This document shows positions 722 through 54,308 of a stretch of DNA of 64,000 nt, in pieces. How positions within the stretch are numbered: the first letter of the stretch is position 1; each line of letters opens with the position of its first letter. The notes beneath the pieces are model-generated. The model saw only the letters and a program-made list of their open reading frames with translations, had not been told where the DNA came from and searched no databases. The stretch is from Hymenopus coronatus (Eukaryota; Arthropoda; Insecta; Mantodea; Hymenopodidae). Location: NCBI GenBank assembly GCA_030762935.1, contig CM060883.1, forward strand, positions 49,215,001 through 49,279,000, written 5' to 3'. The position numbers and the translations under genes were made by a program.

Positions 722-1603
722 AAAAATCTGATGTGCACCCTTCACATGACTTTCTCTATATCCCTGCAACAAATTATTCTTAAAAAGCTTATACTTCTAT
801 TTACTTTATGCTAATCAATAAAAATTAGCAGAAATAGTTTTACTACTTGCTTGCTTGTAAGTAGAAGCGAAATAAGGGACTACCATAGGTTAAAGTGATA
901 GTCAAAAGTGGTTGCTATGTCAATGAAGTTCCTTTGTTTATATGGATAGGAGTTGACAAGTTCCTGTATGAGAAAAGTGCAAGTTTTTCATAGCAGAAAC
1001 CAAAAATAAGGAATGTCTCAAAAACGACGAACTCCACGAAAAAAAATGTATATAACATAAATTGTGTGTTTTAACGTGCTCTATTTTTATGTAGCAAGCT
1101 TTTGTCCATCTCTTACGGTTTAGCAGTTATACAAAATTCAGTAAAATTCATCCAGAATAAACTACTCTTCAGAGGCAATTCCCAGAAAATTCAAGATATA
1201 CATTTTATTTGTCAGGTAAATATCTTTAATATGCGATATTTTAATCAAAATCGTTAGAGCCATTTTTGAGAAAATCAAAATTTTCGAAAAAAGTTCCATG
1301 CAAAGGGTAGTTGAGGGTGGGAGGATTTTTCTCAAAATCTTCGTGTTACATCCCTGGAAGATACTAAACTTAAATACCACGTTTGGTATTTTACCGACGT
1401 TTCGTTTTTGAGTTATCGTGTTCACGGACACACGGACACACCACACACACACACACACACAGGACCTTTTTGTGAAAATGTTTTTTTGGATATTGGGGAC
1501 CCTAAAACATATATTTCCGGCGAAATCTCGGTATCGAATTTTTTGGTGAGTGCAATACCTTCTCTATACACTATGTACATAGTGCGTATAGAGAAAGTAA
1601 AAA
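722..1603 (+). mobile_element. Family H element, full-length reference copy (HINE-like)
   Basis: This is one of the most complete copies, about 880 bp. In order it has the start AAAAATCTGATGTG, a short inverted pair ATGTG/CACAT, the subterminal ACTTTCTCTA (near 750), an A+T-rich body without a meaningful ORF, the small palindrome region near 1380, a CA microsatellite (1438-1461), the block CGGTATCGAATTTTTTGGTG, and a terminal hairpin at 1561-1594 centred on CTATGTACATAG. It ends in GAGAAAGTAAAAA. The 3' stem motif TAGAGAAAGT is the reverse complement of the 5' ACTTTCTCTA. Family knowledge: paired subterminal inverted repeats, an internal microsatellite and a 3' palindrome characterise Helentron-derived HINE/DINE-1/MINE-1 elements. 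The assignment is inferred. A TIR transposon is less likely because the outermost ends are not matched and no TSD is seen. Confidence 0.7.
1438..1461. repeat. CA microsatellite inside family H
   Basis: About 11 CA units directly after ACGGACACACC, at the position where all long family H copies carry a CA/GT tract. Confidence 0.9.
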
Positions 1604-7977: not shown

Positions 7978-8870
7978 AAAAATCTGATGTGTACCATTCA
8001 CATGACTTTCTCTATATCCCTGCAACAGATTATTCTTAAAAAGCTTATACTTCCATTTACTTCATGCTAATCAGTAAAACATTAGCAGAAATAGCCATAT
8101 TACTTGATTCCTTGTAAGTAGAGGTGAAATAAGGGAGTACCATAGGCTAAAGTGATAGTCTTAAGCTGTTTGCTATGTCACTGAAGTTCCTTTGTTTGTA
8201 TGGACAGCAGGTGACAAATTCCTGTATGAAAAATGTGTCAGTTTTTCATAGCAGAAACCAAAAATAAGGAATGTCACAAAAACGACGAACTCCACGAAAA
8301 AAAGTATATAACAAAGTGTGTGTTTTAACGTGCTCTACATTGTTTGTGTAGTAAGTTTTTATCCTCTCTTACGGTTTTGCAGTTATTCAAAATTCAGTAA
8401 AATTCATCCAGAATAAACTATTCTTCAGAGGCTATTCCCAGAAAATTCAAGATATACATTTTATTTGTCAGGTAAATATCTTTAATATAAGAAATTTTAA
8501 TCAAAATCGTTAAGAGCCATTTTTGAGAAAATCAAAATTTTTGAAAAAAGTTCCATGTAAAGGGTAGTTGTGGGTGGGGGGATTTTTCTCAAAATCTTCG
8601 TGTCGCATCCCTCGAATATATTAAACTTAAATACCAAGTTTGGTATTTTACCTACTTTTCGTTTTTGAGTTATCGTGTTCACAGACTCACGGACGCACGG
8701 ACACACGGACGGACAAACACACACATGAACCTTTTTCCGAAAATGCTTTTTTTAGATAAAGGGGACCCTAAAACACATATTTCCGGTGAAATCTCGGTAT
8801 CGAATTTTTTGGTGGAGTGCAATACTTTCTCTATACACTATGTAGATAGTGCGTATAGAGAAAGTAAAAA
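7978..8870 (+). mobile_element. Family H copy, complete
   Basis: Starts in the A-run after SINE-1 and ends in the hairpin near 8831-8863 (one base of the central palindrome changed: TATGTAGATAG) and AAGTAAAAA. The CA tract is short and interrupted. Confidence 0.85.
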
Positions 8871-8879
8871 TAGAAAAGC

Positions 8880-9095
8880 GAGTTTATATCACATTCAGAA
8901 GCGTCACGAGTTCGAGTTTCATTCAGGGTGAGTTAACCAGTAAGGTTTATTTTTTCTCCTGGGTTTTATTTTCCCTTATCCTGAGAAGACGAATGTCGAG
9001 TAACTTTAAGCTCCATGGACCCCGAGATCATTTGAGCACCATTTCACCGATTTCACTCATCGTTCGATATGATCATTGAAGTTAAAGAAAGCTTT
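8880..9095 (+). repeat. SINE-1 unit 1 of 3, head-truncated
   Basis: Starts near TATCACATTCAG just upstream of box B (GAGTTCGAGTTTC) and lacks the box A half. The body and 3' motif match the other SINE-1 copies. Confidence 0.65.
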
Positions 9096-9099
9096 AAAA

Positions 9100-9318
9100 A
9101 ATACATATCACATTTAACAGGTCACGAGTTCGAATCTCGCTTAGGGTGTATTACCCGGATAAGTTTCCTTTTTCCTCCTGGGGTTTGTTTTCCCTTATCC
9201 TGTTAAGACGAATGTCGAGTAACTTTAAGCTTCATGGGTCGTAGATCATTTGAGTATCATTTCACCGATATCATTCACCGTCCGATATGACCAACCTGGT
9301 TAAAGGACGTTAAGCTAT
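9100..9318 (+). repeat. SINE-1 unit 2 of 3, head-truncated
   Basis: Starts at the same internal point as unit 1 (ATATCACATTTAACAGG), then box B GAGTTCGAATCTC, and ends in AAAGGACGTTAAGC. Confidence 0.65.
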
Positions 9319-9324
9319 ACACAC

Positions 9325-9548
9325 ACAAATAATTTATATCGCAGTGAACCGATCACGAGTTCGGATCTCGTTAGGGTGAGTTACCCGCATAAAGTTTTTT
9401 TTCTTTTTTCTCCTGGGTTTTGTTTTCCCTTATCTTGAGAAGAGGAATGCAGATAACTTTAAGCTCCATGGACCCCGAGATGATTTGAGCTTCATTTCAC
9501 CGATGTCATTCATCCTCCGATATGACTAACCAGGTTAAGAGACGCTAC
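9325..9548 (+). repeat. SINE-1 unit 3 of 3, head-truncated
   Basis: Again begins near TTATATCGCAGTGAAC, upstream of box B (GAGTTCGGATCTC), and ends in AAGAGACGCTAC plus a run of A (9549-9564). Confidence 0.65.
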
Positions 9549-12829: not shown

Positions 12830-14080
12830 TTTTTACTTTCTCTAGCTCTTATATACAATGTACATAGTGGATAGAGAAGGTATTGTATGCCACTCAAAAA
12901 TTCAATGTTGAGATTTCTCCGTAAACACTTGATGTCCCCTGACACCGAAAAATCACTTTTAGAAAAAAACCCGTGTGTGCATGTGTGAGTCTATGTCTGT
13001 GGGCAGCATATGTCAAAAACGAAAATAACTGTTAAACACCAAACTGAATATTTATCTTTAGTATCTTCCAAGGATGCGACACGAAGATTTTCAAGAACCC
13101 CCCCCCCCACCACAAACTACCCAATACATGGACATTTTTTTTGAAAATGGCTCTAACGATTTCGATTAAAATGTCGTATACCGTAATACATCACAAATAA
13201 AATTATATTTTGAATTTTCTGGGAATACCTCTGAGGACATCTTTTTATTCTGGTTGAGTTTTGCATAACGGTTAAACCATAACACATAGACAAAAATTGA
13301 TTACACAAATAAACTTATTCCTCGATAAAGTACATAATTTATACCATATATGTTTTTATGTAGAGCTGACCGTTTCTGAGATATTCCTTGTTATTTGTTT
13401 CAATTTTGAACTACTTATACTTTTCTCAAACGGGAAGTAATGTTTCGTTTCATCTCTCTTGTTATACTGCAGGCCATGCAAAGCGAACCGAACTTCAATT
13501 GTTCCCTAGTACCAGCTTTTAAAATATTTGACTATCGATTTGGCCTAGTGTATTTCCTTGTGGCCGTTGTGCTTACAAGGAAGCAATAATAAGATTTCTG
13601 CTAATGTTATTTTAATTGCGTTTTCACACAATTTTTCAGTCTGACTCTACCTATCCAGCTCCTGTCCTACATAAGGCCTGTATGAAAAAACAATTAAATA
13701 ACACTAAAATTAAAATAACAATAATTGATCATAATACTATGAAGCCGGGACTCAAAGTACTTAGGATATAGTAAGTCGCCATTGGGGTACGTCATCTCAA
13801 AATAATTTGAGATCACCTTGTGGTTTAGCGGGATACATGCAGGTCAGTTGAGAAATTTAATGCCGTGCCGGCGTTTTACCATGGTACCAACCGGCTAGAG
13901 ACGGGAGGTTCGTGGTTCAAATTCCGGCTAGGCATTGAGTTTTTCAATCTGACTCTTACCTATTCAATTTATGTCATTGTATAACTTGATTAGCATGTCG
14001 TAATAAAAGAATAATCTTTTATAAGAAAAGTTGTTGGGTAACAGCTACAGAAAGTCGTATGAATGGGACAAATCAGATTT
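12830..14080 (-). mobile_element. Family H copy interrupted by SINE-4
   Basis: The hairpin end is at 12830-12885 and the start end at about 14050-14080 (plus strand: CGTATGAATGGG and AATCAGATTTTT). Body similarity stops near 13615 and resumes near 13987 (GATTAGCATG), so the 370 bp between them were inserted later. Confidence 0.75.
13615..13986 (+). repeat. SINE-4, tRNA-like composite repeat nested in family H
   Basis: Contains the tRNA-like box B GGTTCAAATTCCGGC near 13914-13928. The motif TTTTTCARTCTGACTCT occurs both near its left end (13632) and right end (13940) in direct orientation. Internal marks are CCTGTCCTACA, TACTATGAA and CATCTCAAAATAATTTGAG. The second locus at 59.3-59.7 kb confirms that it is a dispersed unit. 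Confidence 0.6.
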
Positions 14081-14958
14081 TTACTTTCTCTATACGCACT
14101 ATGTACATAGTATATGAAGAAAGTATTGTTTTGCACCCAAAATTCCATACCGATATTTCATTGACGATATGTTTTGAGACCCCCTGATTACAAAAAAAAA
14201 GAATTTTTAAAAAAAAAAATGTCAACGGCGCGCGTGTGGGGAGGGGGAGAAGGCAGCATAGCTCAAAAAACGAAAAGACCGTTGAATACCAAACTTGGTA
14301 TTTAAGTTTGGTATTTTCCAAGGATGCGACACGAAGCTTTTCAAGAAAATTTCCACACCCCCAACTACCCTTTACATAAAACTTTTTTCGAAAATTTTGA
14401 TTTTCTTACAAATGGCGCTAACGATTTTGATTAAAATATCGTATATTAAAGATATTTACCAGACAAATAAGATGTATATCTTGAATTTTCTGGAAATAGC
14501 CTCTGAAGACTACTTTATTCTGGGTCAATTTTATGGAATTTTGCATAACTGCTAAACCGCAAGAGATGAACAAAAACTTAACACACAAAAAATGTAGAAC
14601 AAGTTAAAATATACAATCTATGTAATATACATGCTTTTCGTGGAGTTGATCATTTTTTAGATATTCCTTGTTTTTGTTTTCAATTTTGAAAAACTTATAC
14701 TTTTCTCATATAGAAATTTGTCAACTTCTGTCCATACAAACAAAGAAACTTCAGTCACATAGCATCCAGCTTTTGAGTATCACTTTAACCTATGGTACTC
14801 CCTTATTTCGCTTCTACTTACAAGGAAGCAAGTAATAAGACTTATTTCTGCTAATTTATTCTCGATTAGCATGAAGTAAATAGAAACATAAGCTTTTTAA
14901 CAATAATTTGTTACAGAGATGTAGAGAAAGTCATGTGAATGGAACACATAAGATTTTT
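14077..14958 (-). mobile_element. Family H copy, head-to-tail with its neighbour
   Basis: Its hairpin end shares the T-run of the previous copy's start end (AATCAGATTTTTACTTTCTC). The GT tract is replaced by a G-rich piece (GCGCGCGTGTGGGG near 14228). The start end is at about 14935-14958. Confidence 0.85.
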
Positions 14959-20962: not shown

Positions 20963-23900
20963 CTAAAACGTCAAGGTTAAAGAAACTTTTGCTAAAAATT
21001 TAAAAACCCTGTCCACTGCTCTTGGGTCATCTGCCAGGACCTCAGCAAGAGAGGCCGGCATGCCCATAGATGATCTAATGTGTGCCAGGTGACCACACTC
21101 CAGCAACACATGACGAACTGTCTGTGTCTCCCCACAGAGCGCACAGACAGGAGCAGGTTCACGTTTAAAAAGGTAACTGTGAGTAAAAATACAGTGGCCA
21201 ATTCTTAGCCGAGCTAGTACTACCTCCTCCCGGCGGAATAAACGAGAAGAGGTTACCCAGTTGACAGGGAGGTCCTTCACCTCTCGCAGCCTATTACCAC
21301 GAAGAGCCGACCACTCCGCATGCCAAGTCGAAAAAACGGCTTTCCGTACAGCCACTCTAAAATCTTCTGCTGTTGAATGGGTAATCGTAACACTGGGCGC
21401 TGTGACTGCCGATTTCGCTGCCAAATCCGCCGTGTCATTCCCTGGCAGGCCAACGTGTCCAGGAATCCATGCGCACTCCACATTAAAACCAGAAGCGTGC
21501 AAAATGTGGAGAACGTCCTGGATGCGCTGCACCAAAGGATGGTAATTGTACAGCTCACGAATGCTCTGAAGGGCACTAAGGGAATCACTAAGAATAAGGC
21601 AGTCACCTAATTTTCGACGTCGAATATACAGAAGGGCTTGATAAATAGCATATAGCTCGGCAGAATATATAGATGTGCAACTAGGCAAACCGTATGTAGA
21701 AGTTGCGGTGCCAGTGACAAAGGCACATCCAACACCGTCGGGGCTCTTACTACCATCGGTGTAAATACAAATACGGCCACTGTATTTGGATAAAAATTCT
21801 AAAAAACAACGACGAATACTATCAAGAGGCGTAACAGATTTCCCGTAGAGCGTCATCCCGAGATTGACATGGGAGGTAGCGCGTAACCAAGGGGGGTGTA
21901 TATTCTCTCCCTTGGATAACAGCCGAGGAATGTCAACATGGTGCTGGCGTAGAAGCTCACGGAAACGAAAACCTGCTGGCCTGGGGCTCAGAGAGCGGAG
22001 GCGGTATCGTTCGTGCAGCTCAGGGGAGAAAAACGCGTGATAAGTTGGATGCCCAGGCATACACTTCAGCCCACAGCCATAATTAGCAAGCAGGAGATCA
22101 CGCCGACAACGCAGAGGAGGTTCTCCCGATTCGGCGTAGAGACTAACAACTGGGCTCGTTGGAAAAGCTCCAACGGCCACACGGATGCCCTGGTTATGGA
22201 CTGTGTCTAACCTTCTGAGCACTGAAGGTCGAGCTGAAGAATACACAATGCTGCTATAGTCCAACTTCGAACGAATCACAACACGATAAAGACGGAGCAA
22301 TGCCGTCCGATCCGCACCCCAAGATTTGCCACTTAGTATCCGTAAAATATTTAGAGAACGGTCACATCGTGCTCTAAGCTGTGCTATTTGTGGTGCCCAA
22401 CAAAGTTTCCGATCGAAGATCAAACCAAGGAATCTCGCCTCGTCTGCGAAAGGAAGTAAATCTGGCCCGAGTCGAAGAGACGGCGGCATTTGCCACTTAC
22501 GGCGCCAGAAGTTAACGCAGACTGTCTTCTCAGCGGAGAAACGAAAACCGTGTTTCGAGCTCCAAGCATAGAGATTGTCCAAACACCGCTGGAGACGGCG
22601 TTCCAAAAACGGTGTACGCTGAGAAGTACAGAAGATGGCAAAGTCGTCCACGAATAAACAGGAAGAGACACCTTGAGGCACACATAGTGATATGGAATTT
22701 ATCGCAATAGCAAATAGAGTCACGCTGAGTACCGAGCCCTGCGGCACTCCGTTCTCTTGAATAAAATGGTTAGAAAAAAACCGAGCCCACCCTCACTCGA
22801 AAAACGCGGTCCCGCATAAACTCCTGAATGACCAACGGTAGGCGTCCACATATGTTCCAGTTGTGCAGAGAACGCAATATTCCCGCCCGCCAACACGTAG
22901 GCCTTCTCGAGGTCAAAAAATATCCCAACTGTGGGGCTGTTCTTAAGAAACCCGTCCATAATCTGAGTTGACAGAGAGACAAGGTGGTCAGCAGTTGAAC
23001 GTCGTCGTCGAAAGCCACACTGGATGTTCGTCAGAAGATTGTGGGATTCCAGCCACCACACCAACCGTCCATTGATCATGCGTTCCATCACCTTGCACAC
23101 GCAACTGGTGAGGGAAATAGGACGGTAACTGGAAGGAAGATGGCGGTCCTTTCCAGGTTTAAGAATGGGTATGATGGTGACCTCCCGCCACTTGTCTGGA
23201 AAAATGCCATCAACCCAGACACGATTATAGACCTCGAGTAGGAAATCTTTGCCATCAGGAGAGAGATGTTGCAACATTTGGACGTGGATACCATCTGGAC
23301 CTGGTGCTGAGTGTCGTGAAGAGGAGAGTGCATTGTCTAGCTCTGCCAGGGTGAAAAGGCGATTGTAATCCTCAAGGTTGCCAGAAAGAAACGAGAATTC
23401 TTGAGATTCCACCTGATTCTTAACTGTAATAAACTCAGGGGAATAATTGCCTGAGCTAGACACCTGAGCGAAAGCACTGCCTAAAGTATTCGCCACGTCA
23501 AATGTATCAACAACAGTATCAACGGTAGGTGTTTTGAGACCGGCGATGGGCATATGGTTCAGTTTCCCAGCCACACGTCTTAACTTATCCCATACGACAG
23601 AGGAAGGTGTATGTCGATTAAAGGAACCCACGAATTTATTCCATGACATCTTTTTGCTATTCTTAATAACCCGCCTAGAATGTGCACGCATCCGTTTATA
23701 GTGTATCAGGTTATCCAGTGTAGGAAAACGCTGGAAAACCCGTAGAGCTCGTCTGCGAGCGCGAATAGCATCCCGACAGTCATCGGTCCACCAAGGTACC
23801 GGAAATCGACGGCTGTAGCCAGTCGAACGCGGAATGGATTGCTCAGCAGCAGAAAGAATGGTCCCTGTGAGATGTTCGACCAAGTGGTTCACAGAGTCGT

Positions 23901-24652
23901 GCTCTTCGTAGCTAAATTCAGCCACGTGGGAGTACAGTTCCCAGCTGGCGTGGTCTAGGCGCCAACTAGGTAAATGGGTGGAACATACAACGGGTGTCAA
24001 GACACTAATACGACAAGGAAAGTGGTCACTAGAATGCAAATCCGAGATGATATTCCAGCATAAGGTGACTGCTAGCTGAGGGGAACAAATTGCAATGTCA
24101 ATATGTGAAAAACTATTAAATGCGTCAGAAAGAAAGGTGGGCTCTGCGGTGTTCAAGAGAGCAAGATTCTGACTATCCAAGAAGTCTTTTAAGTAGCGTA
24201 CCTCTCGCACAAGCCCGAGGAGAGCCCCAAAGAGGGTGATGGGCATTCACGTCGCCTACCAATAAAAAGGGTGGTGGCAACTGCGAAATGAGGTGTTCTA
24301 AGTCGCTCTGCGAGAGGTCCGCAGATGGAGGCAAATAGATACTGCAAATGGTGAATAAAGCGGAGGGTAGCTTAATGCTGACAGCAACGGACTGGATTGC
24401 AGATTGTATGGGTACGGAGTTGGCAAAAATATCATCCCGAATAAGCATCATAGTGCCCCCATGTGCCGGGACACCGTCCTCCGGGGATAAATCACATCGT
24501 ACGGAGGAGTACTGCCTGATGGTAACGGTGTCCTGTGGACGGAGCTTCGTCTCTTGTAAGCATACAGCCAAGGGTTCATGCTGGCGTAGCAACAAGTCAA
24601 GCTCTGGTCGATGTGGTCGAATTCCGCGTATGTTCCAATGGAGGATAGCCAT
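20963..24652 (-). pseudogene. ORF2: endonuclease / reverse transcriptase / RNase H, three frame breaks
   Basis: About 1,230 codons. The start ATG at 24652 begins MAILHWNIRG, 22 bp after the ORF1 stop. The endonuclease has N7, the QET glutamate at residue 34 and GDVNAHH (D134). After the first break come SHID and SSDH. The RT fingers and palm carry APGPDG, YRPISLTS, GFRRRRST and FFDLEKAY. The palm continues PQGSVL and LFVDDFAIF (catalytic DD near 22648-22643). RNase H has TDGSKS (D near 21757), SAELYAI (E near 21658), SDSLSAL (D near 21586) and PGHVGLPGNDTAD (H near 21457, D near 21427). A terminal C-X2-C-X7-H-X4-C lies near 21145-21095. All catalytic residues seen are intact. The breaks are an extra base in an A-run (plus T-run 24187-24190), a loss of about five bases right after EKAY (22893-22897), and an extra base in a T-run (plus A-run 22774-22780). 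The product would be a cytoplasmic-to-nuclear RNP enzyme performing target-primed reverse transcription. Confidence 0.9.
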
Positions 24653-24674
24653 TGGGTATATTATGGGATAAGTT

Positions 24675-26132
24675 TCAAATCGAAAGACGCTTCTGCAGAT
24701 TGGGATTAGCTGGTCGGTTCAATTTGTTCTTCTTAGGCGTTGGGCTAGTACTATTTTCAGGAGCACGATCCTGCCGTTTCCGCACTGTCCCTCTGGCAGT
24801 GGCGGCAGAATCCTCCTGGTCCATCTCCTCCACAAGGGAGGTCCCTTTTTCAAGAGCAAATTTCGGTCCGAGAAGTTCGAACCGATTAGATGTGCTGATC
24901 GGCGAAGACGGCCGTCGCCGATTCACGCCCTCCTCCCCAGATGACCCTTCAGAGGAGGATACACGTGTGGAGTTGCGTGTACTTTTCTTACCCTTAGATG
25001 ACTTGGTAATAGATTGCACATTCTCTTTCAAGAAGTCTTGTCGTACATACTTGGTCTTAAACTGTTTTTCCGGGGCAGAAGACGTCGTGAATTTACCAGC
25101 TTTAGTTCCCGAGGTCGAGGCTTTCGGTGACAAGTGTGCAGGACTATTCTGTAAGCTGGCGGATTTGGCAGATGTTGATACCAACTTGGGTGTAGGTGCC
25201 GAAGGCTTTGGCAGCGCTTGGGCTAAAATAACCTTTTCCGCAATTGTAGCCCCGTTCATATCGCCGGTCTGTGTTGCGATTTCCCGACGCGGTACCGGTT
25301 TAGCTGCAACTGAGCTATAGGTACCGGACCTCGGGGCAGAGGGTTGGCGGAGTCGCAGGAGCTTCCGGGCTTCCAAGAAGGACACCTTCTCTTTCACCCG
25401 TATCTCCTGGATCGCTCGTTCCTCTGCAAAACGGGGGCAGTCTCGGGAACTAGATGGGTGTTCCCCGTTACAATTCACACAGGATGGAGCTGAAGTACAA
25501 GCCCCATCGTGGGAGATGTCACCGCAGTGCACGCAGGTGGACTTGCCGGTACACAGCTCACTAGTGTGACCATAACGTTGGCATTTAAAGCACCTCAGCG
25601 GATTGGGTATATAAGGCCGAACTTCGATGACTTCATACCCTGCCCTAATCCTTTGAGGGAGGTCAACCCGATCAAAAGTAAGAAACAGGGTACGAGTAGG
25701 CAGGAATTCACCGTTGACCTTACGTTGTACACGATAAACAGATGAGACACCCTGAGTCGCTAGATTTTCTTGGATCTCCTCAATAGACAAACCGTCCAAC
25801 GCGCGGGTTGTTACTACACCGCGGGAGGAGTTCAGCGACTTGTGCACCTCGACCTTCACTGGATAGCTGGCTAACATGGTGGCTTTAAATATCCTTGCAG
25901 CTTGCGAGGCGGAGTTGGCTTCGACAAGAAGTGTACCATTGCGAGCTCGAACGCAAGATTTGACCGGACCAGCAATGGCATCGAGACCCTTTTGGATAGT
26001 AAAAGGGCTCACCGTAAGGAACTTCTTACCTTCCTCTGTCCTATGAATAACCAAGTAGCGAGGACCACATGACTCGACTACTTCCTTTCCAACGTCTGCA
26101 TTTAAATTAAGGGGTTTTGGTTTTGGTGCCAT
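24675..26132 (-). CDS. ORF1: gag-like RNA-binding protein with three zinc knuckles
   Basis: 485 codons, uninterrupted. It starts MAPKPKPLNL at 26132, the first ATG after the G+C-rich leader. Residues 25-110 look like an RRM-type fold region (YLVIHRTEEG, TLLVEANSASQAARIFKA). Three CCHC knuckles follow: C181-C184-H189-C194, C200-C203-H208-C212 and C218-C221-H225-C232. The C-terminal 230 residues are low-complexity, Ser/Thr/Pro/Lys-rich and basic (KNKLNRPANP near the end). Proteins of this layout coat the element RNA and form the RNP with ORF2 in the I, R1 and Jockey groups. The open frame contrasts with the broken ORF2. Ribosomes would reach ORF2 by reinitiation, since the two ORFs do not overlap. 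Confidence 0.9.
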   Translation of the reverse strand: MAPKPKPLNLNADVGKEVVESCGPRYLVIHRTEEGKKFLTVSPFTIQKGLDAIAGPVKSCVRARNGTLLVEANSASQAARIFKATMLASYPVKVEVHKSLNSSRGVVTTRALDGLSIEEIQENLATQGVSSVYRVQRKVNGEFLPTRTLFLTFDRVDLPQRIRAGYEVIEVRPYIPNPLRCFKCQRYGHTSELCTGKSTCVHCGDISHDGACTSAPSCVNCNGEHPSSSRDCPRFAEERAIQEIRVKEKVSFLEARKLLRLRQPSAPRSGTYSSVAAKPVPRREIATQTGDMNGATIAEKVILAQALPKPSAPTPKLVSTSAKSASLQNSPAHLSPKASTSGTKAGKFTTSSAPEKQFKTKYVRQDFLKENVQSITKSSKGKKSTRNSTRVSSSEGSSGEEGVNRRRPSSPISTSNRFELLGPKFALEKGTSLVEEMDQEDSAATARGTVRKRQDRAPENSTSPTPKKNKLNRPANPNLQKRLSI

Positions 26133-33827: not shown

Positions 33828-34420
33828 AACCAGAGAGTATCGGCTAGTCTTTCAGCACCACGTCAGGGAAATATACTCAAGTGTACAATGAGGGACATTA
33901 AACTTCCCTACAGTTGATAACCAAAGAGTATCGACTAGTCTTTGCGTACCATGTCAGGGAAACATATTCAAGTGTACAATGAGGGACATTAAACTTTCCT
34001 ATGATAACCAGAGAGTATCGGCTAGTCTTTCAGTACCATGTCAGAGAAACCTATTCAAGAGTACAATGACTTCCCTATGATAACCAGAGAGTATCGGCTA
34101 TTCTTTCAGAAACACATAAGGATAACCAGAGTGTATAGGCTCTTTTTAGGACGTCAGTGGAAATTGTACAATGAGGTACATTAACAGGGCCATCCTAACA
34201 GCAGTTAGTAATTGTGGACTATCGTTTCTCCTTCACTATCACGTCACGAAAGAATATTCGAGTGACACTAAGGTATAGCAATTGCTAACAATAAGAATGT
34301 ATCGCCTAGTGTTTCAGCACCACGGCAGGGAAGCATTTAAGTGCATAACGAAGGACAGCTATGGGATCCCTTTCAACACCACTTTAGGAAGTATTTTTGT
34401 CAAGTGTACAATGGGGGACA
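33828..34420. repeat. Degenerate minisatellite, ~90-bp units
   Basis: Units begin AACCAGAGAGTATCGGCTAG at 33828, 33919, 34006, 34082 and 34124, with internal CATGTCAGGGAAAC and GTACAATGAGGGACATTAAA. Unit lengths shrink (91, 87, 76 and 42 bp) by internal deletions. A diverged unit sits near 34287-34355. Confidence 0.85.
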
Positions 34421-38362: not shown

Positions 38363-38803
38363 TTTTATACTTTCCTACACGCACTATGCACAGAGTGTAT
38401 AAAAGAGGTATTGCTTTCCACCCAAAAATTCGATACCGAGATTTCACGAAAATACATGTTTTGTGTCCCCCTGAATGCAAAAAAAAAACAAACACTTATT
38501 TGGAAAAACATATTTGTGTGTGTGTCTGTGGACAGCATAGCTCAAAAAAATAAAAAGACCGTTAAATACCAAACTTGATTTTGATTAAAATCTCTAATAT
38601 TTAAGATATTTATATGTCAAATAAAATGTATATCTTGAATTTTCTGGGAATAGCCTCTAAAGACCTCTTTATCCTGTATGTTTTTATTGAGTTTTGCATA
38701 ACTGGTAGGCCGTAAGAGATAGACAAAATCTTGTTATACAGAAAATGTAGATCACAATAAAACACATAATTTATGTCATGTATATTTTTTCGTGGAGTTG
38801 ATC

Positions 38804-38839
<36 letters not shown>

Positions 38840-39938
38840 TTCTTTGATATTGGTTTCATCTTTAAAAACATTATTTTCTCATACAGGAATTTGTCAACTC
38901 CTGTCCATTCAAAAAATCTGAGGTGTTCCATTCACATGACTTTCTCTACATCTCTGCAACAAATTATTCTATTTACTCACCTAATCGAGAAAAGATTAGC
39001 AGAAATAGTCTATTATTTGCTTTCTTTTAAGTAGAAGCGAAATAAGGGGGGTACTATAGGCTAAAATGATAGTCAAAAGCTGGTTGCTATGTGACTGAAG
39101 TTCCTTTGTTTGTATGAACACGAGTTCACTAAGTCGTGTATGAGAAAAGTATGTTTTTATAGCTGAAACCAAAAACAAGGAATATCTCACAAACAATCAA
39201 CTCCACGAAAAAAATGTATATAGCAAAAATTGTGTGTTTTAAAGTGCTCTACATTTGTTGTGTGGTAAGTTTTTGTCCAGCTCTTACGGTTTAGTAGTTA
39301 TGCAAAATTCCATAAAATTGCCCCAGAATAAAGTAGTCTTCAGAGACTATTCCCAGAAAATTCAAAATATACGTTTTATTTGTCAGGTAAATATCGTTAA
39401 TACACGATATTTTAATCAAAATCGTTAGCGCCATTTTTTAGAAAATCAAAATTTTCGAAAAAAGTTCCATGTAAAGGGTAGTTTGGAGTGGGGGGATTTT
39501 TCCCAAAATCTTCGTGTCGCATCCCTGGAAGGTACTAAACTTAAATACCAAGTTTGGTATTTTACCAACTTTACGTTTTTGAGTTATGGTGTTCACAGAC
39601 ACATACACGGACCTTTTTCTGAAAATACTTTTTTTTTTAACACAGGGGACCCTAAAACATATATTTCCGGTGAAATCTCGGTATCGAAATTTTTGGTGTG
39701 GAGTGCAATACCTTCTCTATACACTATGTACATAGTACGTATAGAGAAAGTAAAAAGGAACTTCAGTCACAAAGCAACCAGCCTTTGATTATCACTTTAA
39801 CCTATGGTACTTCCTTATTTCGTGTCTACTTATAAGGACGCAAGTAATAACACTAATGTTTTCTCGATTAGCATGAAGTAAATAGAATTTGTGGCAGAGA
39901 TGAAGAGAAAGCCATGTGAATGGATCACATCAGATTTT
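38363..39938 (-). mobile_element. Family H copy interrupted by another family H copy
   Basis: The hairpin end at 38363-38410 has a diverged core (ACTATGCACAGAGT). An internal deletion removes the block between AAACTTG and ATTTTGATTAAAAT. A T-run lies at 38805-38836. The match stops at CTCCTGTCCATTC (38909) and resumes at GGAACTTCAGTCAC (39757), ending near AACACATCAGATTTTTTG-like sequence at 39938. Confidence 0.8.
38910..39756 (+). mobile_element. Family H copy inserted into a family H copy
   Basis: A complete copy (AAAAAATCTGAGGTG to hairpin 39715-39749 and GTAAAAA). The host element's uninterrupted sequence is known from other copies (GTCCATACAAACAAAGGAAC), so the insertion point lies in an A-rich run and no duplication other than A residues is visible. 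Confidence 0.85.
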
Positions 39939-40654
39939 TTGAACTCCTAAATCGTTCCTTTCTCTTGATCAAGCAAAAACAGTGGAATTTTAAAGCCATA
40001 ACCCACTTTAAAACATTTGATTATCGCTCAAGCTAAACCTTTGCAACACACAACAATACAATGTAGGATTTTACCAGTTTAATTATGTCAGGAGAAATGG
40101 TTTCCTCTGGTTGAATGTGTAATATAGCTTCTAAAGCTACATCTGACATGTTTCATCTTCTTTTTGACTTATGAAACCTCATAGAATTAATAGCTATTAC
40201 ATTTTGGGAGATAGAATTATATTTTTATTTGGATTGTATGATAAACAATTTAAGAAAAATTGATAATTCAATACATTTTGAATGAAAAGCAAATTTAACT
40301 ATTGATAATATTTGTTTTAAAACATGCGGTGAGGCAACATTGCAGGCAACTCGGCAAGAATACAACGTGTCACATATACCGCAGGCGGTTCCAGCGAATG
40401 AGATGGAAAGAGGGAATGCCTAGTGAAACTGACGTGGTGGGGACAGTTCTGAGCCAAGCCTCGAGCCGGTTCAGAACTCGATGACTCGATGACCGTAAGC
40501 TGACAAGATATGTCTACTTATTCACCCTTGTATACACAAATAAAAGTGTACTAAAATAATTTTGAAATGTTTGTCCAAATAGCCTGAAACAGATAGAAGA
40601 ATAGGCCATTATTTTGCAAGAATACTTTACAGAGGTGTGGGTATAACAAGTGGT
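39939..40654. other. No firm feature
   Basis: The first 80 bp may be more degraded family H. The rest (including CTTCTAAAGCTACATCTGAC near 40130 and a less A+T-rich block at 40320-40500) has no repeat partner in the window. Confidence 0.35.
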
Positions 40655-44553: not shown

Positions 44554-45385
44554 AACTTTCTTTATACGTACTATGTACATAGTGTATAGATAAAGTATTG
44601 AATCCCACCCAAAAATTCCATACCGAAATAGAAGTTTTATAGTCCCAGTATTCAAAAAAAGCATTGTTAGAAAAACGTCCATGAGTAAGTGAAACCGTGT
44701 GTCTGTGAACACGATAGCTTTAAAACAAAAATCCAGTAAAATACCAAACTAGGTATATAAGAATAGTAACTTCCAAGGATGCGACACGAAGATTATGAGG
44801 AAAATACTCCCACCCCAAACTACCCTTTACATGAAACATTTTCGAAATATTGATCTTCTCACAACGATTTTGATTAACATTTCTTATATTTAAGATATTT
44901 ATATAGCAAATAAACTTTATATTTTGAATTTTCTGAAAATAGCCTCTAAAGACCTCTTTATTCTAAAAGAATTTTGCGTAACTGGTAAACTGTAAAAGAT
45001 AGACAGATACTTACTATACAAAAATTTAGAGCACGTTTAAATACACAATTTGTAATATATCCTTTTCTTGTGGAATTGGTCATTTCTGAGATATTCCTTG
45101 TTATTTGTTATAGGATTAAATTACCTAACTTTTCTCACATGAGAAATTGTAAAATCCTGAACGGATTTCAACCACATGGTAACCAGCTTTTAAAATATTT
45201 TACATTCGTTTTAGCCTAGTGTATTCCCTTATTTTCCTCCTACTCTCAAAGAAACAAGCAATTAAGATAAATTTCTGCTAATTTTTAACTCGATTATCAC
45301 AAATTAGATACAAGAACATACATTTTAACAATAATTTGTTACTGCGATGTAGAGAAAGTCATGTAATGGAACACACAAGATTTTT
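44554..45385 (-). mobile_element. Family H copy, complete, in a chain
   Basis: The hairpin end ACTTTCTTTATACGTACTAT joins the previous copy directly. The start end is near 45358-45385. Confidence 0.8.
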
Positions 45386-46116
45386 AGAAAAAGGTCCGTG
45401 TTCGTCAGTGTGTCTGTGAATACGATAACCAAAAACAAAAAGTCGGTAAAATACCGAACTTGGTATATAAGTTTAGTATCTTCCAAAGATACGACACGAA
45501 GATTTTAAGGGAAATCCTCCCACCACAAACAACCCTTTACATGGAAAAATGTTCGAACATTTTGATTTTCTCAAAAATGAGTATCAATTCTGATTAAAAT
45601 TTCGTAAATTAAAGATATTTACATAGCAAATGGAATGTATATTTTGAATTTTCTGGGAATAGCCCCTAAAGACCTCTTTATTCTGGATGAATTTTACTGG
45701 ATTTTGCATAACTAGTAAACCGTAAGAGATAGACAAAAACTACTGCACAAAATATGTAGATATCGTTGAAGCACACAATTTAAGACATACCTTTATTCGT
45801 AGAGTTGTCCATTTTTGAGATATTCCTTGTTATTGGTTATAGTTTTAAAATGCCTACTTAAAACTTTTTTACATATGGGAATTTGTCAACTCCTTGCAAT
45901 GCAAAGAAACGGGTTTCATTCACATGGCAACCAGCTTTAAACGATTTGACTATCGTTTTAGCCTACTGTATTCCATTATTTCCCTTCTACTTAACAGAAG
46001 GGATTTCTGCTAATGTTTATCTCGATTAGCATGAAGTAGATAGAAGAATAAGCTTTTTATCAATAATTTCTTACAGAAATGCAGAGAAAGTCATGTGAAT
46101 GGAACATATCAGATTT
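45386..46116 (-). repeat. Family H copy starting at the microsatellite flank
   Basis: Lacks the hairpin and pre-hairpin blocks. It begins AGAAAAAGGTCCGTGTTCG immediately after the previous copy's AAGATTTTT. Confidence 0.8.
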
Positions 46117-46289
46117 TTACTTTCTCTACACATACTCTCTATCGTGTATAGAGAAGGTATTGTATCCCACACAAAAATTCGATACCGTGAATTCACTGGA
46201 AATACATGTTTTGGGTCCCCCTGAATCCAAAAACAGCATTTTTGGAAAGCGGTCTGCGTGTTGCTGCAGGTGTTAGTGTGTGTGTATGT

Positions 46290-46328
<39 letters not shown>

Positions 46329-47036
46329 TATGGACAACATAGCTCAAAAACGAAAAGACCATTAAATACCAAACTTGGTATTTAAATTTGGTGTCTTCCA
46401 AGGATGCGACACGAAGATTTTCAAGAAAATCCCCCCACCCCGAACTACCCTGTACAAGGACATTTTTTCGAACAATTTTATTTTCTCAAAAATAACTAAC
46501 GATTTTGGTTAAAATATCGCATGTTAAAGATAATTACCTGACAATGACAAATAAAAGGTGTATCTTGAATTTTCTGGGAATAGCCTCTGAAGGCTACTTT
46601 ATTCTGGTTGAATTTTACGGAATTTTGCATAACTGCCAAACCGTAAGAGATGGACAAAAACTTTCCACACAAAATTTTAAAGCACATTAAAACACAGAGT
46701 GTATGTTATATGCATTTTTTGGCGGAGTTGATCGTTTTTAGATATTCCTTTTTATTGGTTTCAGCTTTAAAAACTCACTTTTCTCGTACAGGAATTTGTC
46801 AACTCCTGTCCATACAAACAAAGGAACTTCAGTCACATAGCAACCAGCTTTTGACTATCACTTTAACCCACGGTACTCCCTTATTTTGCTTCTGTTTACA
46901 AGGAAGCAAGTAATAAGACTATTTCTGTTAATTTTTTCTCGATAATTTGAAGTAAATAGAAGCATAAGCTTTTTAACAATACTTTGTTGCAGAGATGTAG
47001 AGAAAGTCATGTGAATGGAACACATCAGGGTTTTTT
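46113..47036 (-). mobile_element. Family H copy, complete, in a chain
   Basis: Shares the junction ATCAGATTTTTACTTTCTC with the previous copy. The hairpin is shortened (CATACTCTCTATCGTG). The GT tract is at 46275-46327. The start end is at 47006-47036. Confidence 0.85.
46275..46327. repeat. GT microsatellite inside family H
   Basis: About 25 interrupted GT units (GTATGTGTGTATGTG then pure GT). Confidence 0.95.
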
Positions 47037-53433: not shown

Positions 53434-54308
53434 TCTGGTGCTTTCCATTCATATGATTTTCTCTATATCTCTGTAACAATTTTTTTTTTTATTTTTTTTT
53501 AATTGCTTCATTTGTACCATTTAACATCAAGGTCATATCGGGGGCTTTCACTTGTGAAACTGTAGGTTCAGAACATTAGGTTAAACTTAATATTACTAAA
53601 CACACGCACATTCACTCTCGCATCCATACTTCCAGGGAATAATTCCGGTTAAAGAAAAATTCCCCGCCCCAGCCGGGAATCGAACCCGGGAACTCCGGGT
53701 GAGAAGTCAGCTCGCTGACCACTCGACCACGGAGACAGTCTTAACAAATTATTGTTAAAAAGCTTAACCTTCTCTCTTCTTCAATCTAATCGAGATAAAT
53801 ATTAGCAGAAATACTTTCTTGTAAGCAAAAAAGTAGTAAGGGAATACACTAGGCTAAAACGACATTAAAAGTTGGTTGCCATGTGGGTGAAACCCGTTTC
53901 TATGCTTGCCTGAGTTAAATACCCATAGGTGAAAAGTTTTAGATTTTAAAACTGAAACAAATAACAGAAAAAATGGTGAGCTCTACTAAAAAAAAAAATG
54001 ATATGACATGAATTGTGTGTTTTAAATCTACATTTTTTGTGTAGTAAGTTTTTGTTTATACCTTACTGTTTACCACTTACGCAAAATTCACTAAAATACA
54101 TCCAGAATAAAGAGGTCTACAGAGGCTATTCCCAGAAAATTTAAAATATAAATTTTATTTGGCATGTAAGTATCTTTAATATACGGTATTTTAATCAACG
54201 TCTTTAGTCTTTTTTGAGAAAATCAAAATTTCGATTTTTTCTCCGTGTAAAGGGTACTTTAGGTTGGGGATTTTTCTCAAAATCTGCATGTCACATTGGA
54301 AGATACTA
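53434..54308 (+). repeat. Family H copy with nested SINE-10, 3' truncated
   Basis: The start end TCTGGTGCTTTCCATTC is at 53434, the SINE interrupts after CTGTAACAA, and the body resumes at TTAACAAATTATTG and runs to GGAAGATACTAAACTTA at 54308. Confidence 0.75.
53480..53741 (-). repeat. SINE-10 copy with short duplication
   Basis: Flanked by TAACAA at 53474-53479 and 53742-53747. On the minus strand the head reads CTCCGTGGTCGAGTGGTCAG (a tRNA-like box A) with box B GGTTCGATTCCC near 53690-53679. It has the same body as 47.03-47.3 kb and a T-run (A-tail) at 53480-53500. Confidence 0.75.

What the first reader, a model, noticed from the sequence alone, without database searches (positions are those of the whole stretch)
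722..1603. A very abundant family H with Helentron-like ends
About fifty copies share paired subterminal motifs (ACTTTCTCTA at one end, its inverse TAGAGAAAGT in the stem of a terminal hairpin at the other), an internal palindrome, a microsatellite and A-run ends, with no coding capacity. This is the plan of HINE/DINE-1/MINE-1 elements. The density in one 64-kb window suggests a major genome component, possibly an undescribed family.
Basis: partly seen in the sequence, partly recalled or inferred. Interest (0 to 1): 0.75.

Follow-up and report, generated by a model that had tools for sequence, protein, structure and literature searches.

The report
Huge Helentron-type non-coding repeat family

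Summary
A profile of the family covers 32,001 of 64,000 bases in 65 fragments, 15 with both ends. Genome-wide, the 37-base end occurs 331,582 times (up to 3 mismatches; control 0). The consensus subTIR is 12 bp; there is a GT microsatellite and no coding. Nested copies give filled/empty sites: insertion is mostly into T-runs, and 14 copies show no duplication beyond T's. Genome-wide, five T's outnumber six on the 5' side (37,112 to 6,629), less so on the 3' side (16,946 to 10,720). Head-to-tail junctions number 5,255, tail-to-tail 9; 5'-to-5' was not counted. The 61 fragments measured are old (K2P at least 0.084). The genome holds decayed Helentron-type Rep genes, but the one family whose 5' end I could delimit lacks H's end, so the autonomous partner is unproven. 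Verdict: a very large HINE-type family, a new member of a known kind.

The parts
727..1603 (-). Copy of the H element given in the finding; 5' end at 1603, 3' end at 727
1599..1603 (-). Five T's at the 5' boundary (AAAAA on + strand)
   Evidence: genome-wide 37,112 ends with exactly T5 against 6,629 with exactly T6
1557..1598 (-). 5' terminal hairpin (42 bases) that opens with the 5' subTIR ACTTTCTCTA
   Evidence: z -6.64 for window:1557-1604:-
1589..1598 (-). 5' subterminal inverted repeat ACTTTCTCTA (12 bp ACTTTCTCTACA in the family consensus)
1442..1461 (.). AC/GT microsatellite
749..758 (-). 3' subterminal inverted repeat TAGAGAAAGT
731..747 (-). 3' small hairpin, arms ATGTG and CACAT, followed by CAGA
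   Evidence: fold of window:717-765:- weak (z -1.18)
722..726 (.). T-run (AAAAA on + strand) on the 3' side of the copy
   Evidence: compare
38912..39755 (-). H copy nested in another H copy (38577-38911 and 39756-39939); gives a filled/empty comparison
14079..14958 (+). H copy directly preceded, head-to-tail, by the 3' end of a fragment at 13966-14082
46115..47034 (+). H copy directly preceded, head-to-tail, by the copy at 45378-46118
7978..8869 (-). H copy inserted in a local tandem repeat; paralogous units without it at 8978-9443 align with gaps at the site, so they do not fix the exact bases

Best explanation
H is a family of non-autonomous rolling-circle-type (HUH/Rep-mobilised) elements of the HINE/DINE-1 type. 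A Rep protein encoded elsewhere is thought to recognise the subterminal repeats and hairpins, nick at the ends, and place a single strand into T-rich target DNA. The element carries, or re-creates, five T's at its 5' boundary and stops at CAGA in front of host T's. Shown here: the anatomy, T-run targets, filled/empty sites, lack of duplications beyond T's in the copies parsed, head-to-tail against tail-to-tail polarity, abundance, age, and decayed Helentron-type Rep genes in the same genome. Inferred: the single-strand mechanism, and that a Helentron protein was the helper.
For: 12-bp subTIR ACTTTCTCTACA, 4 nt in from the 5' end of the profile and 27 nt from its 3' end (five T's counted), 5' subTIR inside a palindrome, 3' palindrome, GT microsatellite, as in HINE (PMC4067079). 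Nested insertions at T-runs with readable empty sites; 15 of 18 H-into-H junctions at T-runs by my reading. Exact repeats flanking copies: length 5 in 10 of 14 copies against 9.5 from all pairings, length 6 or more in 0 of 14. T-runs: 5' T5:T6 = 37,112:6,629, 3' T5:T6 = 16,946:10,720. Head-to-tail junction 5,255 against 9 tail-to-tail places. GSPH, diagnostic of Helentron Rep, in 10 of 40 weaker PF14214 loci read; PF14214 and DUF6570 in one such copy.
Against: No autonomous element with H's ends was found. The Helentron-type family whose 5' end could be delimited starts TTAAATTACCG, and the H profiles find nothing below E 0.1 in L078-L081. In T-runs a TTTTT duplication cannot be told apart from carried T's. 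Among the locally parsed 5' ends only 28 of 48 have exactly five T's, and only T5 and T6 were counted genome-wide. The 5' hairpin shows no compensatory changes (0 double changes in 23 sequences; paired share 0.908 against 0.909 in shuffles): expected for decaying dead copies, but no positive support. The 3' hairpin of the 722-1603 copy does not fold better than shuffles. 3 of 18 H-into-H junctions do not fall at a T-run.
Confidence: 0.8

Rival explanations
1. H is a cut-and-paste (DDE) MITE-like element with a TTTTT target-site duplication.
For: A run of five T's on both sides is common (10 of 14 copies), and a T5 duplication at the edge of a T-run would give the same letters.
Against: No terminal inverted repeats: the two ends differ, and the shared 12-mer sits 4 nt from one end of the profile and 27 nt from the other. 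No pair-specific duplication beyond T's (0 of 14). In the nested copy 38912-39755 the target reads TTCCTTT(G/C)TTTG in other copies, and the interrupting base is on neither side, unless that target copy had a T there. T-run lengths differ between the two sides.
Confidence: 0.1
2. H is moved by another HUH single-strand system (IS200/IS605-like Y1 or an undescribed lineage) rather than by Helentrons.
For: Hairpins at both ends, T's next to the 5' end and no other duplication also suit Y1-type insertion next to a fixed short motif (recalled, from no call); the delimited Helentron-type family has another 5' end.
Against: No Y1_Tnp (PF01797) match in the genome at E 0.001, while the control rings in 5 of 14 genomes.
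Confidence: 0.07
3. H is a retroposon (SINE-like) whose A-run is a poly(A) tail.
Against: The run next to the hairpin prefers five (37,112 against 6,629 with six); no duplication longer than five (0 of 14); in the window 27 fragments keep one end and 31 the other, so there is no strong one-sided truncation.
Confidence: 0.03

Closest known systems
HINE (Helentron-associated INterspersed Elements) of mite and mosquito (PMC4067079: abstract, Background, the first of three parts of Results, and the sections on other organisms and on classification seen; the rest not)
   Same: Subterminal inverted repeats of 12-15 bp close to the 5' end and palindromic, 3' palindrome, T-rich target, boundary T's (2 to 5) that belong to the element, no target-site duplication found, simple repeats in some copies, no coding.
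   Different: Here the 3' subTIR lies 27 nt from the profile end (about 38-60 bp in the mite); no Helentron with the same ends was found.
DINE-1/INE-1 of Drosophila (same paper)
   Same: SubTIRs, microsatellite, 3' stem-loop, TT target, dominant copy number.
   Different: DINE-1 has a 13-bp subTIR, a separate 5' inverted repeat and a conserved core; I did not align H to DINE-1.
Canonical Helitrons of the same genome (L009-L028)
   Same: Rolling-circle type; present in the genome.
   Different: GL[PL]H.H Rep motif in 14 of 20 loci; a GGCG..CGCC hairpin with CTAG in 6 of 20. H has neither TC...CTRR ends nor an A/T target.
Fossil Helentron-type family of this genome (L078-L080)
   Same: GSPH Rep motif in sister copies, PF14214 and DUF6570 in L078.
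   Different: 5' end TTAAATTACCG, no H end; its 3' end was not determined.

Membership tests
HINE/DINE-1 (Helentron non-autonomous) | Subterminal inverted repeats of at least 11 bp, 5' copy near the terminus | tested here: met
   12 bp ACTTTCTCTACA in the profile consensus; single copies often share only 10 bp
HINE/DINE-1 (Helentron non-autonomous) | Palindrome or stem-loop close to the 3' end | tested here: met
   ATGTG...CACAT then CAGA in the consensus; the fold of one decayed copy is not better than shuffles
HINE/DINE-1 (Helentron non-autonomous) | Insertion in TT/T-rich sequence | tested here: met
   15 of 18 H-into-H junctions (my reading)
HINE/DINE-1 (Helentron non-autonomous) | No target-site duplication | tested here: inconclusive
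   None beyond T's in 14 copies; a duplication made only of T's cannot be excluded
HINE/DINE-1 (Helentron non-autonomous) | No coding capacity | tested here: met
   for the 722-1603 copy
HINE/DINE-1 (Helentron non-autonomous) | Ends shared with a Helentron encoding Rep/helicase/endonuclease | tested here: inconclusive
   Helentron-type Rep present, but the one delimited 5' end differs; its 3' end and other families were not delimited
Canonical Helitron | 5' TC, 3' CTRR, insertion between A and T | tested here: not met
   Ends are TTTTTACTTTC...CAGA next to T's
DDE transposon MITE | Terminal inverted repeats | tested here: not met
DDE transposon MITE | Target-site duplication | tested here: inconclusive
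   None beyond T's; T5 ambiguous
IS200/IS605-like Y1 | Y1 transposase in the genome | tested here: not met
   PF01797: 0 matches at E 0.001

The most novel reading that the evidence does not exclude
H belongs to a rolling-circle lineage distinct from the Helentron-type family left in this genome. It carries its own five-T target motif at the 5' boundary and further T-runs inside, so that every insertion offers new targets. One gene-less family of this kind then built about a fifth of a 3-Gb genome and outlived its helper.
Probability: 0.12. Interest if true: 0.65.

Novelty: new member of a known kind. Interest (0 to 1): 0.42.

Why it matters
It is an extreme case of a gene-less rolling-circle-type family: 331,582 recognisable 3' ends in 3.13 Gb. 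A rough scaling from one window gives about 20% of the genome; for comparison, Helitrons make up 28% of the house-fly genome (PMC6327564, passages) and 7-20% of grasshopper repeatomes (PMC7486953, passages). The many nested copies make its insertion rule readable: T-run targets, a preferred count of five T's that is stronger on one side, and 5,255 head-to-tail against 9 tail-to-tail junctions. The missing partner leaves open which protein moved it.

Tried and rejected
Autonomous partner among the 20 best PF14214 loci (L009-L028): in 14 of 20 the motif reads GL[PL]H.H, in 6 of 20 it was not read, in none GSPH. Where readable they are canonical Helitrons. H fragments near them (9.0% of those 200 kb) need no link to explain them. 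L012 first looked like a Helitron with H ends, but its coding part ends in its own GGCG..CGCC..CTAG and abuts H fragments.

The endonuclease family PF14529 gave 150 scored of 19,195 candidates. A very long open frame among them (L037) was due to withheld stretches that read N; the readable part looks like a LINE to me (not searched). I did not pursue it.

Helentron-type family: the DNA search puts the 5' end at L080 position ~153 (5 rows start exactly at 153, 9 at 185). The stretch I hoped would hold its 3' end (L081) shows no helicase, endonuclease or H end that I could recognise, so its 3' end is unknown. Pfam recognised 2 of 6 fragments of this gene (DUF6570, PF14214) and nothing in 4. Of about 86 PF14214 loci by my count I read 60.

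Covariation in the 5' hairpin: none. Viral contigs (2 scans) and prokaryote genome contigs (1 scan): no exact match to the 3' end. Rfam: nothing in the window at gathering scores. PDB: nothing for one Rep fragment. Motif strings in papers: 63 papers hold one of three strings; none of the 15 listed holds the long 3' string, and they look unrelated by title; the other 48 were not seen. Self-targeting: 18 of 48 ends have H directly downstream, no more than H's 50% share of the window, so no special preference is claimed. Opposite 5'-to-5' junctions were counted only locally (0), not genome-wide.

Rows dropped: one search counted 14 of 30 two-ended copies (16 not parsed); one search used 23 of 59 ends (25 matched the pattern, 23 of them 42 long); one search used fragments longer than 300 bases; one search parsed 48 of 59 5' ends, and 30 3' ends.

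Full report
What is there. The window lies at C4:49215001-49279000 of an unnamed assembly of 3,126,739,099 bases in 384 contigs. The copy at 722-1603 is one of many: ACTTTCTCTA with up to one mismatch is ten times more frequent than in shuffled sequence (71 against 7.15). An iterated profile of the copies covers 32,001 of 64,000 bases in 65 fragments, on both strands; 27 fragments have the hairpin end, 31 the other, 15 both. No coding frame of note overlaps the 722-1603 copy.

Anatomy. From 5' to 3': TTTTT; ACTTTCTCTAYACNNACTATGTACATAGTGTATAGAGAAGGT, a 42-base hairpin that starts with the subTIR; about 100 bases; a GT microsatellite (position 144-159 of the 870-position consensus); about 670 bases; then TGTAGAGAAAGT, a small hairpin ATGTG-N7-CACAT, CAGA, and T's. 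The longest word shared by the two ends in inverted form is ACTTTCTCTACA, 12 bases. The 5' hairpin of the 722-1603 copy folds with z -6.64 and none of 200 shuffles folds as well; the 3' hairpin of that copy is not better than shuffles (z -1.18, 25 of 200). The 5' hairpin shows no compensatory changes among 23 copies, which is what independent decay of dead copies gives.

Boundaries and target. H copies sit inside other H copies, so empty sites can be read from uninterrupted ones. In L030 the consensus GC-TTTTTTT-GGAT became GC-TTTTT|H|TTTTTTTTT-AGAT. In L035 the consensus T7 became T5|H|T12. In the window the H copy at 38577-39939 reads TTCC-TTTTT|H|TTTTTTG where other copies have TTCCTTT(G/C)TTTG. 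Of 18 places where a 3' end abuts another H fragment, I place 15 at a T-run as read along the inserted strand (five of these are the T5 of a neighbour's 5' end) and 3 not (my reading of the coordinates). Exact repeats on the two sides do not exceed five T's in the 14 copies parsed: 10 of 14 share five, as do 9.5 on average when sides are paired at random, and 0 of 14 share six or more. Genome-wide, ends with exactly five T's before ACTTTC outnumber those with exactly six by 37,112 to 6,629. After CAGA the numbers are 16,946 and 10,720. Other run lengths were not counted genome-wide; among ends parsed locally, 28 of 48 5' ends have five, and 10 of 30 3' ends. The 5' side thus has a preferred number and the 3' side follows the host run more loosely. 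Published Helentrons also carry a string of 2 to 5 T's at their boundaries (PMC4067079, section read). Because target and boundary are both T's, a TTTTT duplication cannot be excluded by these data alone.

Polarity. Five abutting pairs in the window and in L029-L036 are all head-to-tail. Genome-wide the exact head-to-tail junction occurs 2,597 + 2,658 times, and the tail-to-tail one, even with a spacer of 0-6, at 9 places; 5'-to-5' was not counted genome-wide. This follows from strand-specific insertion at T-runs, from rolling-circle read-through, or both.

Abundance and age. The 37-base 3' end with up to three mismatches occurs 166,206 + 165,376 = 331,582 times; the backward-read control occurs 0 times. 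The window holds 17 of these, 2.5 times the genome's density of 6.8 per 64 kb. Scaling the window's 50% by that ratio gives about 20% of the genome, a rough figure from one window; 200 kb around Helitron loci hold 9.0% (18,081 bases, 3 counted ends). K2P distance to the profile consensus is 0.152 (median, 43 window fragments, minimum 0.095) and 0.122 (18 fragments in eight loci chosen for an intact end, minimum 0.084). No fragment below 0.08 was seen among these 61, so the burst looks old. Helitrons reach 28% of the house-fly genome and 7-20% of grasshopper repeatomes (PMC6327564 and PMC7486953, passages read), so the share is high but not without precedent.

Partner. PF14214 finds 112 matches. 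The best 20 loci are canonical Helitrons wherever the motif can be read (14 of 20). Of 40 weaker loci read, 10 show GSPH directly, one GCPH, and seven more by alignment or translation with one substitution in the motif. A protein search gives 56 matches; many hold stops and the longest open frame is 532 residues. One copy has a long N-terminal repeat array, DUF6570 and PF14214. Its 5' end, defined by five rows that start at the same base, is TTAAATTACCG..., without H's hairpin; nine further rows start 32 bases later. Its 3' end could not be found. So a Helentron-type Rep was present in this genome, but no link by ends to H is shown. No Y1 transposase was found at the threshold used.

Conclusion. 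The HINE criteria on subTIRs, 3' palindrome, T-rich target and lack of coding are met. Absence of a target-site duplication and shared ends with a Helentron are inconclusive. I call H a HINE-type family, a new member of a known kind, notable for its size. None of the 15 papers listed by the motif search holds its long 3' string, but a described family under another name, for example in a repeat database, cannot be excluded with these tools.

Noticed in passing
window 20963-26132, minus strand: A LINE with reverse transcriptase and RNase H matches and a sub-threshold endonuclease match, broken into several frames.
   Followed up: partly
window 8978-9443: Two units of about 230-250 bases in tandem, a third related unit being split by the H copy 7978-8869.
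   Followed up: partly
window 53664-53737: A tRNA-Val-like sequence on the minus strand between H fragments; may be the head of a SINE.
   Followed up: no
window 33828-34069: A 91-base tandem repeat, 2.7 copies.
   Followed up: no
L080 1-2970 and L078: Decayed Helentron-type gene with a long N-terminal array of repeats like ENYQELERVRNKEHKQQAR.
   Followed up: partly
L012 808-1195: A 64-base H 5' end followed directly by what reads like a fragment of a Helitron helicase C-terminus; probably a deletion junction.
   Followed up: partly
window 12831, 17082, 42552, 47724, 52701: Copies that look like a second H subfamily, with a different hairpin interior (ACAATGTACATAGTGGATAGAGAAGG type) but the same or nearly the same subTIR.
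   Followed up: no
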